Shown: positions 28,381 to 32,131 of the stretch, piece after piece | Position numbering within the stretch: the stretch's first letter is position 1 | Layout of the letters: each line of letters begins with the position of its first letter | Source: a virus | Length of the DNA stretch: 49,768 nucleotides | Virus record (IMG/VR): IMGVR_UViG_3300032148_000003 | Coordinates: 1 to 49,768 of that record | Reading direction: 5' to 3' (one strand) | Notes under the pieces: model-generated | Databases searched by the model: none | The model's input: only the letters and a program-made list of their open reading frames with translations | Told to the model about the DNA's origin: nothing | Program-made: the position numbers and the translations under genes

Positions 28381-29211
28381 CTAAGTCCTTTCGTAGCAAG
28401 CTTTAGGGATTTCCCACATTTCACCTTTCTTCTGACGTATATACAGAAGTCTTCCTACCTCAAGTAAAGACTTTTCCCAAGTCTCACCATATTGGTTTCT
28501 ATATTGGTCGGCTATATCAGCCCACCTATTAGTAGAAGGTTCAAGTAATTTCTTAGTCTTGACCTTTCCTAATCCGTTAATTCCTGGAATATTATCTACT
28601 CTATCACCTAATATGAATTGATACTGTAGATGATACTCAGCCTCTTTCTCATTGACCCAATCTAAATAGTCAGTCCTAAAATCATAATGCCACCCTGGTA
28701 CAGTCCATAGATCTTTATCAATAGTACATATACATGTATCCTCTGTTTGATCTATACCTAATAAGTCATCAGCCTCCTCATTCTCACTTACCTTGGCCTC
28801 ATACTTAGTCTTAAGATACTTCCTAATGTCATGGTACTGATCTGGTTTCTCACTTGATCTGGAACCCTTATAAGGTTGTAACTTAGCTACATCATTTCTA
28901 AAGTTAGTATGACCTGAGATGTACATCTGATACAGGGTACATTTAGCCCTCTTAACAATCCAAGCTATCCTCTTATCTAATGCCTCCAGTGTTTCCTCTA
29001 GGGGACTACACCATTCCTTCTTTAGCTCTACATTAAAACCTTCAGCAGCTTGGGTGAATTGTGACATCTCTTTAATGAAACTATTACAAGCTGTCTTAGT
29101 ACTCTCGGTAGTTAGTATGTCCCCACTGTCATTCTTTACTACCCATTCTTTATTATGTGCCGACCAACCTAATTGGTAAACCAACACATCACCATCAATT
29201 AATGCCTTCAT
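28381..29211 (-). CDS. 5'-3' exonuclease (FEN/T7 gp6-like)
   Basis: 276 residues. The acidic metal-binding clusters of the FEN family are present in order: LIDGDVLVYQ at residues 4-13, NEEADDLLG near 139-147, TIDKDLW near 157-163 and LGDRVDNIPGI near 200-210. The last is followed by a helix-hairpin-helix-like GLGKVKTKKLL. In T7-like phages this enzyme removes RNA primers and degrades host DNA. It is the first replication gene after the RNA polymerase region and has its own candidate phage promoter upstream. Confidence 0.9.
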   Translation of the reverse strand: MKALIDGDVLVYQLGWSAHNKEWVVKNDSGDILTTESTKTACNSFIKEMSQFTQAAEGFNVELKKEWCSPLEETLEALDKRIAWIVKRAKCTLYQMYISGHTNFRNDVAKLQPYKGSRSSEKPDQYHDIRKYLKTKYEAKVSENEEADDLLGIDQTEDTCICTIDKDLWTVPGWHYDFRTDYLDWVNEKEAEYHLQYQFILGDRVDNIPGINGLGKVKTKKLLEPSTNRWADIADQYRNQYGETWEKSLLEVGRLLYIRQKKGEMWEIPKACYERT

Positions 29212-29240
29212 TGAAACTCCTCTAATTTCTGTTTGTTATC

Positions 29241-29260
29241 TGTAATGGTGAGCCAACCTT
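29241..29260 (-). promoter_or_regulatory. Candidate phage RNA polymerase promoter (leftward, before exonuclease)
   Basis: On the minus strand it reads AAGGTTGGCTCACCATTACA. It shares 9 core bases with all other copies, and beyond the core it continues GATAAC like the copy before SSB. It lies about 30 bases upstream of the exonuclease start, in the gap to the divergent plus-strand gene. Confidence 0.78.
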
Positions 29261-29269
29261 AAAATAAGC

Positions 29270-29297
29270 TTGACATATTAGAAAGTGATGATATAAT
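29270..29297 (+). promoter_or_regulatory. Sigma70-type promoter, rightward
   Basis: TTGACA at 29270-29275 and TATAAT at 29292-29297 are both perfect consensus boxes, separated by 16 bases. The predicted start is near 29304. It points at the plus-strand secreted-protein gene about 240 bases away, so host RNA polymerase could express that gene early and independently of the phage enzyme. Confidence 0.8.
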
Positions 29298-29299
29298 TC

Positions 29300-29485
29300 A
29301 CTTGTCTTTGGTTTATTTTCACCTTACGGGGTTTGGTAGAAAACAGAATCAATTTGATTTGTCACTAACGTAGAGGGGTGACAAGAGATAGGTGAGAAGC
29401 ATATAACAGTAGAGGCCTACCCCGAGGAACCACTAGTAGCGACTCACCCATTTCCCTCATTCAGTACACTATATTAGAGGAGTCT
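29300..29485 (+). ncRNA. Structured leader or candidate small RNA
   Basis: Nothing is coded here, but the sequence can fold. TTGTCAC (29359-29365) pairs with GTGACAA (29378-29384) in a 7-bp hairpin. GGTGAG (29391-29396) pairs with CTCACC (29443-29448), closing a loop that contains GTAG/CTAC. It lies between the sigma70 promoter and a phage promoter, so it would be the 5' leader of the secreted-protein mRNA or a separate RNA. GGTGAG could instead pair with the CTCACC of the downstream promoter region. Folding was judged by eye. Confidence 0.4.
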
Positions 29486-29490
29486 TATAT

Positions 29491-29512
29491 AGCTGGCTCA
29501 CCTATAGAAGGG
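29491..29512 (+). promoter_or_regulatory. Candidate phage RNA polymerase promoter (rightward, before secreted-protein gene)
   Basis: The element reads AGCTGGCTCACCTATAGAAG then GG. After the core it has TATAGAAGGG, the closest of the seven copies to the initiation region of known T7 and SP6 promoters. It is 28 bases upstream of the ATG at 29540. Confidence 0.8.
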
Positions 29513-29539
29513 AACAACTTTTAACTTTAGGATAATATA

Positions 29540-29842
29540 ATGAAAAAACTAGCAATAGCAGTATTAACTGTAGCAACAATGGGTTCAGCATCAGCAGGAT
29601 TCTTTGACAATAACAACTTCACACCTTGGGGTAACAACCTGAACAATGGATATGCAGAAGACAACGGTATCTTCTCATACAACCCATACTCATACTTCAA
29701 CCCACGTTGGTACATCAAAGAAGCTAATAACTTCATGAATGAGATCGATGAAGGTGGTGAGTACCAACCAAAGTCTAACCATAACTTCCCTGCTCAATAT
29801 GAGAATGGAAATCAGGTTACATATGGTTATAAGTATAAGTAA
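29540..29842 (+). CDS. Secreted Asn/Tyr-rich small protein, lone rightward gene in the replication block
   Basis: 100 residues. A clear signal peptide (MKKLAIAVLTVATMGSASAG, cleavage near 19) leads to a mature part rich in Asn, Tyr, Phe and Gly with no Cys (PWGNNLNNGYAEDNGIF, then YNPYSYFNPRWYIKEANN). Its codons favour C-ending AAC, TTC and TAC, unlike most neighbours, as expected for high expression or a host origin. It has both a sigma70 and a phage promoter, and AGGATAA before the ATG. The composition recalls sulfur-globule and other Asn/Tyr-rich envelope proteins of sulfur-oxidising bacteria, but I cannot confirm homology. It ends 7 bases from the convergent RNA polymerase gene with no terminator between. 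Confidence 0.75.
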   Translation: MKKLAIAVLTVATMGSASAGFFDNNNFTPWGNNLNNGYAEDNGIFSYNPYSYFNPRWYIKEANNFMNEIDEGGEYQPKSNHNFPAQYENGNQVTYGYKYK

Positions 29843-29848
29843 TTAAGA

Positions 29849-32131
29849 TCAACTGATGATGTAGTTAGCATGTAATACTTCATCGTCGGTTACATCTCCA
29901 TAGATAATATCAGAGTCATCAGATCCCAAATCCTTCAATATAGAGGATAAAGTACTTGGCCCTATAGTATCTATGAAGATCATCTTAAACTCGTCAAATA
30001 GGGTATCTACGTGACTCGCAGGGACACTGAACTGGTCATGTATCATCATGAAGTCAGTGATCCCAATGCGGCCCAACTTGGACAAGACCATAGTCATGAG
30101 AGAGGCATCAAGTGAATGAACAATATTAGCTGAGATGCCTGTCTTATGTCTTTTTCTTAGAATACCCTTATAACCGAAGGCGACTGTTATCATCAACCTC
30201 CTATCTCCAAACCTTACTCTTAATCTCTCAGTATGTATTCGGCCATAACCTTGAAATGCTGTAAAGTTAGTAGGAGTCTTCCAAGATAAGTAGACATCCT
30301 CAGCTTTCTTAACTGCATCACATGCTGTCTTTTGGAATACTTTAAGTGTGTTTGCTTGTGGTGGGTAAGCCCCATCTTTACCGTCAAGTGCTTTGAAGAT
30401 ACATCTAGACAAAGCCTTAGTGTCTTTAAATTTCATGTTCGTGAAGGCATCAGAGCCAAACGTGCCTCTATCGTTGTACAACTGGTATCTGATACAATCT
30501 TCACCTGCTGAGTAATAGTAGGACATACATGGTCTTTTGGTGACTTTCCTAGATCCATATTCTATGTAATCATTAAGTTGAAATGCAGTAACGAGATTCT
30601 TATCCATCTCTTTTTCATCTTCTACATCCTCAAACTTATCCATCATCTTATACATATTATTAACGGCAACAGACCAAACCTCATCATAAGCATCACCGAT
30701 TTCTCTAGTAGGATGTTGTATAACATTAGTATCTTGACAACCATTTCTATCCCTAGTTAAGAATGACAGGATCTGGAGGCCAGAATTGGTAGCGTCTAGC
30801 CCAACAGGGATTCTACATTGCCAACCCTCACTACCATTCTCTTTCAAGTCTACAAAAGCTATAGCACTTGCTAAGAATTGCCACTTAGTCTTCTTCTCAC
30901 CCTGTAATCTCATGATTAAGTCAGAGTTAAGAGGGTCTTCAACAGCATGCTTAATAGACTCATAATTATCATAGACCCAATCAACTCTATCCTGCTTAGA
31001 CAACTTATCCATACCTGCACAATTAGCTACGTGGTAGGCCAAGTGAGCCTCTACATTCTCTGACCATTCTTGAGGATTAGCAAACTGTAGTAGAGCCTTA
31101 GAAAGATCACTACCTGTAGGCTCTAACCACTGTTGCATAGGATAGAATCTACCTCTACTGTCTAATTGAAAGTCAAAGTGGAAAGGCTTATCTAATGAGC
31201 TTCTGCTTCTTTCATTAATAATAGTAGCCTTCTTAAGTACCATATTAAATTCTCTTCTCTTAGAGTGTGCAGCAATTATCTTAATCAGAGGTTCAGACCT
31301 CTCTGTATACCAATCTTTAGCCATCTGTTTAGATAACTTATCTAAGTACCTACTATTAATACCTTGAGCCAAAGCCCACTCAGCCTTCTTATCTTTAACA
31401 AAGTCTTCCTTGTTCTTGATCTTCATTAAGTCACAGATAGATTCAGTAACCATAGATTGTGATATTTCCTCAGGTATCCAACAGTGGTCACCCTCTTGCA
31501 TAAGTGAGACAGTCTTAAGTATCTCCTCATTAATCAAGAAAGGAGTACTACCATAGTTATTGAGAGCCTCATAGACATGGGGTATCTCTTGCTTAGAATA
31601 CTTCCCATCCCACCCAACAGGCATCCTCTTAACAATAGAATTAACACCCTTCCAAGGCTTATCCCAAGGTGTGTAGTGGTCAGTAGGAAACTCCCCTAAT
31701 GATTCATCAGAATTAAGTATAAGCTTAAGAAACTCATCACAAGCAGGCTCTAAAGTATACATCTCATTCTTACCACCTATCTTAATAGGTTTAGCTAATC
31801 TTATACAACCACATATCTGTAAGAGACCAACAGCCTCTATACCAATCTTAATTAATTCTCTCTTCTTCTTGTAGTTACCACCAAAAGTAAGCTTAGACAT
31901 CTTCTCACCCTCTAAGTGTAGTAACTTAGTACCGATAGACTCACCAATACTAACTAACTGCTCTCTATTAGCAACCCCCTTAACAACAGCCTCTAATATA
32001 GTATTAGCTAACTCTTCTCTATCACCCTCATATCTTCTTAAGTACTTACATAACGGAGAAGGATTATTCTTAGCCTTCTGTGCTATATTAATCTTATCCA
32101 CTAACTTATATAAAAACTTCCTATCAATCAT
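29849..32131 (-). CDS. Single-subunit DNA-dependent RNA polymerase (T7-like)
   Basis: 760 residues, shorter than T7 (883). Motif A is GLDATNSGLQILSF (Asp near 445), motif B is VTKRPCMSYYYSAGED (near 528-543, keeping the Lys and the Tyr equivalent to T7 Lys631 and Tyr639) and motif C is MMIHDQFSVPA (near 697). The palm and fingers are therefore intact. The N-terminal domain is reduced by about 100 residues. The segment between AFGYKGIL and NIVHSLD, where T7 has its promoter-specificity hairpin, is about ten residues shorter. The C-terminus lacks the T7 FAFA foot. It should transcribe from the TGGCTCACC elements found around it. Start follows GAGGGGAATTAGTT. Confidence 0.95.
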   Translation of the reverse strand: MIDRKFLYKLVDKINIAQKAKNNPSPLCKYLRRYEGDREELANTILEAVVKGVANREQLVSIGESIGTKLLHLEGEKMSKLTFGGNYKKKRELIKIGIEAVGLLQICGCIRLAKPIKIGGKNEMYTLEPACDEFLKLILNSDESLGEFPTDHYTPWDKPWKGVNSIVKRMPVGWDGKYSKQEIPHVYEALNNYGSTPFLINEEILKTVSLMQEGDHCWIPEEISQSMVTESICDLMKIKNKEDFVKDKKAEWALAQGINSRYLDKLSKQMAKDWYTERSEPLIKIIAAHSKRREFNMVLKKATIINERSRSSLDKPFHFDFQLDSRGRFYPMQQWLEPTGSDLSKALLQFANPQEWSENVEAHLAYHVANCAGMDKLSKQDRVDWVYDNYESIKHAVEDPLNSDLIMRLQGEKKTKWQFLASAIAFVDLKENGSEGWQCRIPVGLDATNSGLQILSFLTRDRNGCQDTNVIQHPTREIGDAYDEVWSVAVNNMYKMMDKFEDVEDEKEMDKNLVTAFQLNDYIEYGSRKVTKRPCMSYYYSAGEDCIRYQLYNDRGTFGSDAFTNMKFKDTKALSRCIFKALDGKDGAYPPQANTLKVFQKTACDAVKKAEDVYLSWKTPTNFTAFQGYGRIHTERLRVRFGDRRLMITVAFGYKGILRKRHKTGISANIVHSLDASLMTMVLSKLGRIGITDFMMIHDQFSVPASHVDTLFDEFKMIFIDTIGPSTLSSILKDLGSDDSDIIYGDVTDDEVLHANYIIS

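What the first reader, a model, noticed from the sequence alone, without database searches (positions are those of the whole stretch)
29270..29842. Secreted Asn/Tyr-rich protein with its own dual promoters, embedded antiparallel in the replication block
A single rightward gene sits between the RNA polymerase and exonuclease genes, all leftward. It has a textbook sigma70 promoter, then a phage promoter, a good ribosome site, a signal peptide and C-ending codon preference, all signs of strong expression in early and late infection. The mature protein is Cys-free, Asn/Tyr/Phe/Gly-rich, of a type seen in sulfur-globule-like and matrix proteins. It looks like an acquired moron or auxiliary gene acting in the periplasm or at the cell surface.
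Basis: partly seen in the sequence, partly recalled or inferred. Interest (0 to 1): 0.78.

Follow-up and report, generated by a model that had tools for sequence, protein, structure and literature searches.

The report
Phage-borne sulfur-globule-type host protein gene
A virus that probably infects SUP05 sulfur-oxidizing ocean bacteria carries, behind its own start signals and a new-looking folded leader RNA, a copy of a small exported protein that almost only sulfur-storing relatives of SUP05 make, which suggests that the virus interferes with the host's stored-sulfur granules.

Summary
The 100-aa rightward gene (29540-29842) lies between leftward exonuclease and RNA polymerase genes, with a perfect sigma70 promoter, a phage-type promoter, a signal peptide and C-ending codons. 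Orthologues sit at the same place in five related viral contigs and at another place in a sister genus. A profile built from bacterial proteins alone finds the phage protein at E=2e-22. Those relatives are a secreted Asn/Trp/Tyr-rich family of the SUP05 family (Pseudothioglobaceae), present in 46 of 50 genomes with dsrA and 3 of 33 without. All phage copies form one clade. In 'Ca. Thioglobus autotrophicus' EF1, which stores sulfur in periplasmic globules, the gene lies in a tandem of similar secreted proteins. Best reading: a host-derived sulfur-globule-envelope-type protein used by phages to act on the host's sulfur store. Homology and acquisition are shown; globule location and effect are inferred. 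The protein is hydrophilic, repeat-free and not tested against A. vinosum Sgp proteins, so I do not file it as an Sgp.

The parts
29234..29255 (-). phage-type promoter for the leftward exonuclease/replication genes, divergent from the finding
   Evidence: TGGCTCACCATTACAGATAACA, 0 mismatches; 6 sites in the window against 0.11 expected
29270..29297 (+). sigma70-type (host RNA polymerase) promoter
   Evidence: TTGACA-16-TATAAT, 12/12; conserved in all 5 sequences aligned
29305..29453 (+). conserved structured leader RNA (P1 hairpin, P2 hairpin, possible P3 stem, pseudoknot)
   Evidence: 19 pairs, 97% of cells paired, 6 pairs with changes on both sides (1/500 shuffles) on 5 sequences; covariance-model hit 148.6 bits; no Rfam match; none in SUP05 genomes
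29318..29340 (+). P1 inner helix (29318-29323 with 29335-29340) and its 11-nt loop
   Evidence: 4 of 6 pairs show changes on both sides
29327..29331 (+). pseudoknot 5' strand CGGGG in the P1 loop
   Evidence: pairs with 29420-29424; one G-C to A-U double change, one mismatch in L004
29358..29385 (+). P2 hairpin (29358-29365 with 29378-29385)
   Evidence: 8 pairs, 100% paired, one U-A to C-G double change
29411..29434 (+). most conserved leader block AGAGGCCTACCNNGAGGAACC(A/T)CT; holds pseudoknot 3' strand CCCCG 29420-29424
   Evidence: in the viral collection its core occurs only in this phage group, apart from two chance matches
29469..29492 (+). CTATATTAG...CTTATATAG hairpin upstream of the phage promoter; counterpart just before the gene in the sister genus
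29494..29515 (+). phage-type promoter for the gene
   Evidence: TGGCTCACCTATAGAAGGGAAC; 3 mismatches to the window consensus; invariant TGGCTCACCTATAGAAGG core in relatives
29529..29532 (+). ribosome-binding site AGGA, 7 nt before ATG
   Evidence: sequence
29540..29842 (+). gene for the secreted 100-aa Sgp-type protein
   Evidence: host-only profile E=2.3e-22
29540..29596 (+). predicted Sec signal peptide (MKKLAIAVLTVATMGSASA)
   Evidence: inspection; the same architecture in all homologues
29660..29749 (+). conserved core DNGxFxYNPYxxxxPRWYxxExxNxxxExD
   Evidence: 13 invariant columns across 24 phage and host proteins, nearly all in this core
28381..29211 (-). neighbour: 5'-3' exonuclease
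   Evidence: phrog_107 E=4e-50
29849..32131 (-). neighbour: single-subunit (T7-type) RNA polymerase
   Evidence: PF00940 E=6e-44; phrog_414

Best explanation
The gene is a host-derived auxiliary gene of podoviruses that probably infect SUP05 (Pseudothioglobaceae) sulfur oxidizers. Shown here: one common phage clade homologous to a secreted Asn/Trp/Tyr-rich protein family found, within the SUP05 family, almost only in dsrA-bearing genomes; purifying selection in two of three pairs; and conserved expression signals. Inferred: host RNA polymerase makes the transcript from the sigma70 promoter early, the phage polymerase adds more later, and the protein is exported by Sec to the periplasm. There its conserved core (DNGxFxYNPY....PRWY..E..N...E.D) lets it join the host's related proteins at the surface of periplasmic sulfur globules. 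Most likely it keeps the globule wall supplied, or remodels it, while host expression is shut down, so that stored sulfur stays usable as electron donor during infection. The phage version lacks the long Asn/Pro-rich tail of the host proteins, so a wall-loosening effect is also possible. The conserved leader RNA probably controls this transcript; how is unknown.
For: Host-only profile finds the phage protein at E=2e-22 among 3,429 viral reading frames and gives no convincing second hit in the window. Host orthologues with the same core. Phage clade single, support 100/99, attached to the SUP05 sequences. In the family, present in 46/50 dsrA genomes and 3/33 without dsrA (Fisher 6e-15, not corrected for kinship). 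EF1 (contig length equals the published genome) has it in a tandem of secreted N/W/G/P-rich proteins; EF1 stores sulfur in periplasmic globules and has four putative sgp genes (PMC6509183). dN/dS about 0.15 and 0.20 in two of three phage pairs. Two relatives come from metagenomes 3300001680 (Kilo Moana) and 3300001681 (Abe); PMC8190135 lists Kilo Moana and Abe as Lau Basin samples.
Against: No experiment places the host family on globules, and which EF1 genes were called sgp could not be read (supplement not available). The protein is hydrophilic (GRAVY -1.3), whereas A. vinosum SgpA-C are described as extremely hydrophobic (PMC10386293), and it lacks proline-spaced repeats. Of the dsrA-bearing genomes sampled elsewhere in the class (113 outside the SUP05 family), only 4 have a detectable distant relative. 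No Pfam, NCBIfam or PDB match. Phage host inferred only from homology and habitat.
Confidence: 0.52

Rival explanations
1. Envelope or surface role unrelated to sulfur: the host family is a periplasmic or outer-membrane matrix protein, and the phage copy changes the envelope to block superinfection or protect the infected cell.
For: Signal peptide and early-type promoter fit an exclusion gene; the host family is low-complexity and tandemly duplicated, as surface proteins often are. Phage copies diverge fast and the coding sequence appears swapped between lineages.
Against: Presence follows dsrA within the SUP05 family, which a general envelope role does not predict, although shared ancestry could also give that pattern. 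No membrane anchor, lipobox or outer-membrane signature is evident.
Confidence: 0.27
2. Dominant-negative action on the sulfur store: the short, tail-less phage protein caps or poisons globule-wall assembly so that stored sulfur is released and burned by the host's reverse Dsr pathway for phage replication. (A sub-case of the sulfur-globule reading.)
For: Phage proteins keep the core but lack the host C-terminal N/G/P-rich tail. SUP05 phages are known to carry dsrA and dsrC, which push the same pathway (PMC4164917; PMC8190135).
Against: Truncation alone does not show inhibition. The window phage carries no recognised dsr or sox gene among the genes scanned.
Confidence: 0.2
3. The real unit is the leader RNA: an early trans-acting or cis-regulatory phage RNA driven by the sigma70 promoter, with the secreted gene an independent passenger behind its own phage promoter.
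For: The sigma70 promoter, P1, P2 and pseudoknot are conserved, while the coding sequence behind them has been exchanged. One relative (L004) has a terminator-like inverted repeat between RNA and gene. In the sister genus the gene lives without this RNA in the contigs held.
Against: Only five sequences in about three classes; the window leader alone is not unusually stable (z=-0.5); no terminator is evident in the other relatives.
Confidence: 0.25
4. Virion or lysis protein of this phage group.
For: Present in all members of the two phage genera whose locus could be read.
Against: Sec signal peptide, bacterial homologues outside prophage context, no PHROG match, not in the structural block in the window genus.
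Confidence: 0.03

Closest known systems
Secreted DNGxFxYNPY..PRWY family of SUP05/Pseudothioglobaceae (e.g. 'Ca. Thioglobus autotrophicus' EF1, L081:7916-8248; Ca. Ruthturnera, L045:4995-5348)
   Same: Signal peptide, Asn/Tyr/Phe-rich mature part, the whole conserved core, E=2e-22 against a host-only profile.
   Different: Phage proteins are shorter (83-100 against 102-132 aa), have a different Lys/His-containing tail instead of the Asn/Gly/Pro-rich tail, and start the mature part with GFFD rather than FW/FF-N.
Sulfur globule proteins SgpA-D of Allochromatium vinosum
   Same: Small, Sec-exported; the host family goes with reverse Dsr and with a globule-storing organism.
   Different: Hydrophilic, no proline-spaced repeats, no homology tested; no localization data.
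Sulfur auxiliary metabolic genes of SUP05 phages (dsrA, dsrC, soxYZ)
   Same: Host-derived gene aimed, on this reading, at the same sulfur-oxidation pathway, in phages partly from the same plume metagenomes.
   Different: Those encode an enzyme subunit or sulfur carriers; this would be a wall protein of the sulfur store. No report of a phage-borne one was found in the open-access library.
Long structured 5' leaders (riboswitch-like or trans-acting RNAs)
   Same: About 150 nt with two hairpins and a loop pseudoknot ahead of a gene.
   Different: No Rfam match even at E<=5 apart from chance; restricted to one phage genus, absent from SUP05 genomes.

Membership tests
SUP05 secreted DNG/PRWY protein family | sequence homology over the core | tested here: met
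   host-only HMM E=2.3e-22; hhalign probability 99.5%
SUP05 secreted DNG/PRWY protein family | N-terminal signal peptide ending AxA | tested here: met
   by inspection of the alignment only; no SignalP available
SUP05 secreted DNG/PRWY protein family | Asn/Gly/Pro-rich C-terminal tail (common in the host proteins, variable; not treated as defining) | tested here: not met
   phage tails are short and charged; a phage sub-clade rather than an ordinary member
Sulfur globule proteins (A. vinosum SgpA-D type) | Sec signal peptide and small size (11-13 kDa for SgpA-C) | tested here: met
   mature 9.6 kDa; definition from PMC10386293
Sulfur globule proteins (A. vinosum SgpA-D type) | extremely hydrophobic | tested here: not met
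   GRAVY -1.3 (phage), -1.6 (EF1 orthologue)
Sulfur globule proteins (A. vinosum SgpA-D type) | repetitive sequence with regularly spaced prolines | tested here: not met
   no repeats in the 81-aa mature part, 5 prolines not regularly spaced (inspection)
Sulfur globule proteins (A. vinosum SgpA-D type) | homology to SgpA, SgpB, SgpC or SgpD | not tested
Sulfur globule proteins (A. vinosum SgpA-D type) | bound to sulfur globules in vivo | not testable with these tools
   needs fusion microscopy or globule proteomics
Sulfur globule proteins (A. vinosum SgpA-D type) | host lineage oxidizes stored sulfur with reverse Dsr | tested here: met
   host family in 46/50 dsrA genomes and 3/33 without; EF1 stores periplasmic sulfur (PMC6509183)
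Phage auxiliary gene / moron | own transcription signals and acquisition from a bacterium | tested here: met
   sigma70 and phage promoters conserved; phage clade joined to bacterial homologues
Phage auxiliary gene / moron | dispensable or patchy among related phages | tested here: inconclusive
   absent at this locus from more distant relatives L007-L026 and no profile hit in them (L022 excepted, it is part of a near relative), but those contigs are fragments
Known RNA family or riboswitch | match to a curated covariance model | tested here: not met
   Rfam 15: only a chance hit, snoU31b 17.9 bits against a cutoff of 37

The most novel reading that the evidence does not exclude
Phages of SUP05 bacteria carry their own version of a protein of the wall around the host's periplasmic sulfur globules, and so steer the build-up or use of a storage inclusion during infection, under control of a previously undescribed pseudoknotted leader RNA.
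Probability: 0.4. Interest if true: 0.78.

Novelty: new variant of a known kind. Interest (0 to 1): 0.62.

Why it matters
Sulfur genes known in SUP05 phages (dsrA, dsrC, soxYZ) act on the oxidation chemistry. This would be, as far as the searched library shows, the first viral gene aimed at the physical sulfur store and, more generally, a virus-borne structural protein of a bacterial storage inclusion. SUP05 bacteria dominate oxygen-minimum and plume waters, so phage control of when stored sulfur is used would bear on sulfur and dark carbon budgets. It also gives the uncharacterised SUP05 protein family a test: EF1 is in culture. The leader adds a candidate phage RNA class.

Tried and rejected
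Direct searches with the single protein (INPHARED phages, viral contigs, Pfam, PHROGs, NCBIfam, PDB) found nothing, so absence of homologues was first considered; searching the syntenic gap of RNA-polymerase relatives and then with an alignment solved it. Composition artefact rejected: a host-only profile gives 77 bits to this frame and under 8 bits to any other window frame. AlphaFold on the 8-row alignment was uninformative (pLDDT 46, one helix 55-69), so no fold search was made. Two extra matches to the leader motif in other viral contigs were chance. Leader RNA in host genomes: only weak hits, best E 0.02 per genome. P3 as a covarying stem: arm-swap energies did not separate native from swapped pairs cleanly, so it is not counted as evidence. 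Co-occurrence outside the SUP05 family (4 of 5 against 113 of 365 dsrA-bearing) is too weak to use.

Full report
What is there. The window is a 49.8-kb viral record of a podovirus with single-subunit RNA polymerase, primase-helicase, DNA polymerase, exonuclease, ribonucleotide reductase, PhoH, portal, scaffold and capsid genes. Between the leftward exonuclease and RNA polymerase genes lies one rightward gene, 29540-29842, 100 aa. In front of it lie a perfect sigma70 promoter (29270-29297, one of two 12/12 matches in 28-39 kb), about 200 nt of leader, and a phage-type promoter (29494-29515; six such sites in the window, 0.11 expected). The codons end in C twice as often as in 21 other genes (49% against 25%, p=1.6e-4). 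All points of the observation are confirmed.

Relatives in phages. Searching with the RNA polymerase and exonuclease gave contigs with the same arrangement: IMGVR 3300023481_000007, 3300003514_000034, 3300001680_000750, 3300001681_000434 and 3300002242_001627. In each, the gap holds a rightward gene for an 83-84-aa secreted protein with the core DNGFFGYN...EMWEPRWYVKEADNFLNE. Phages with more distant polymerases (L007-L021, L023-L026) lack the gene there, and a profile search of their fragments finds nothing. An alignment search found a sister genus (L037-L039; ribonucleotide reductase 81% identical). There the gene sits at the far end of the leftward block, with an extended -10 sequence, a CTATATTAG hairpin and a strong terminator of its own. 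The window's protein is closer to those copies than to the copies in its own near relatives, although its backbone is about 88% identical to the latter in DNA: the coding sequence has been exchanged. dN/dS is 0.15 and 0.20 in two pairs, and 0.47 in a third pair with few changes.

Relatives in bacteria. The genome scan gave one confirmed relative, in a Candidatus Ruthturnera MAG, a genus of Pseudothioglobaceae. Searching the 83 held genomes of that family found homologues in 51, often two or three in tandem. The alignment of 24 phage and host proteins keeps 13 invariant columns, including DNG, PRWY and flanking acidic/Asn positions. A profile from bacterial sequences only finds the window protein at E=2.3e-22 among 3,429 viral frames; the next window frame scores below 8 bits. 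All phage proteins form one clade (100/99) attached to the SUP05 sequences. The bacterial family is therefore the likely source of the phage gene; direction is inferred from the much wider bacterial spread.

What the bacterial family may do. In the SUP05 family it is present in 46 of 50 genomes with dsrA and in 3 of 33 without. The three exceptions may be incomplete MAGs: one has a dsrA fragment near a contig end. Shared ancestry, not only function, can give this pattern. In EF1 (contig of 1,512,449 bp, as published) the orthologue lies in a tandem of four secreted proteins between a methionine-synthase-like gene and HIT/ssb-like genes; a second cluster of four longer W/N/G/P-rich secreted proteins lies elsewhere (neighbour names are from the sequence by eye). 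EF1 has periplasmic sulfur globules and four putative sgp genes (PMC6509183). I could not learn which four these are.

How it most likely works. Early transcription by host RNA polymerase and later by the phage enzyme, Sec export, and assembly with the related host proteins on the sulfur globule. Shown: homology, single phage clade, expression signals, purifying selection in two of three pairs. Inferred: transcription timing, export, globule binding, metabolic effect. I favour supply or remodelling of the globule wall so that stored sulfur stays available during infection. An inhibitory, sulfur-releasing action and a non-sulfur envelope role remain open.

The leader RNA. From just downstream of the sigma70 promoter to 29453 the relatives share a structure: hairpin P1 with an 11-nt loop, hairpin P2, and a highly conserved block whose CCCCG pairs with CGGGG of the P1 loop. 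On five sequences 97% of cells pair; six pairs show changes on both sides, reached by 1 of 500 shuffles; sliding the partners removes the signal. P1 varies most and keeps pairing. The pseudoknot has one compensatory pair and one mismatch. The window leader alone is not unusually stable (z=-0.5). There is no Rfam match, and no convincing copy in 83 SUP05 genomes or in the sister genus contigs held. It is a good but thinly sampled candidate for a new phage RNA.

Membership. The phage protein belongs to the SUP05 secreted family as a tail-less phage branch. It is not filed as a sulfur globule protein: it is hydrophilic and repeat-free, contrary to the published description of A. vinosum SgpA-D (PMC10386293), and homology to those was not tested. 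'Works like an Sgp' remains the best-supported functional reading.

Setting. Contigs from 3300001680 and 3300001681 are Kilo Moana and Abe (PMC4660358), listed as Lau Basin samples in PMC8190135, and hydrothermal-plume communities dominated by SUP05 are where SUP05 phages with dsr genes were described (PMC4164917). The host of this phage is inferred, not proven.

Noticed in passing
window 29305-29453 (+): Conserved leader RNA with pseudoknot between the two promoters; candidate new RNA family limited to this phage genus.
   Followed up: yes
window 28353(-), 29234(-), 29494(+), 32169(+), 32484(-), 38501(+): Six phage-type promoters with core TGGCTCACC, 0.11 expected; they define the likely recognition site of this phage's RNA polymerase.
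   Followed up: partly
window 38066-38039 (-): The only other perfect sigma70 promoter in 28-39 kb; probably starts the leftward early transcript that converges with the rightward one from 29270.
   Followed up: no
L037:4681-4932, L038, L039: Sister phage genus carries the gene at the end of the leftward block with its own extended -10, hairpin and terminator; the window's coding sequence resembles this copy more than its syntenic orthologues (exchange between lineages).
   Followed up: partly
L082 (EF1 131-140 kb), L050 (Ca. Ruthturnera): Second clusters of longer secreted proteins with GGSNxGPF repeats next to an isocitrate-dehydrogenase-like gene; likely further sulfur-globule candidates.
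   Followed up: no
L092, L090, L093 and the 24 genomes of G300's group: Distant secreted relatives with CNPYDEWDPRYWMEEM and a YGG/PYG-rich tail in all 24 genomes of that group, near an RND-type exporter gene in the loci read.
   Followed up: partly
L089:657-1349 (-): A transposase-like gene lies directly beside the host orthologue in one SUP05 genome (G057).
   Followed up: no
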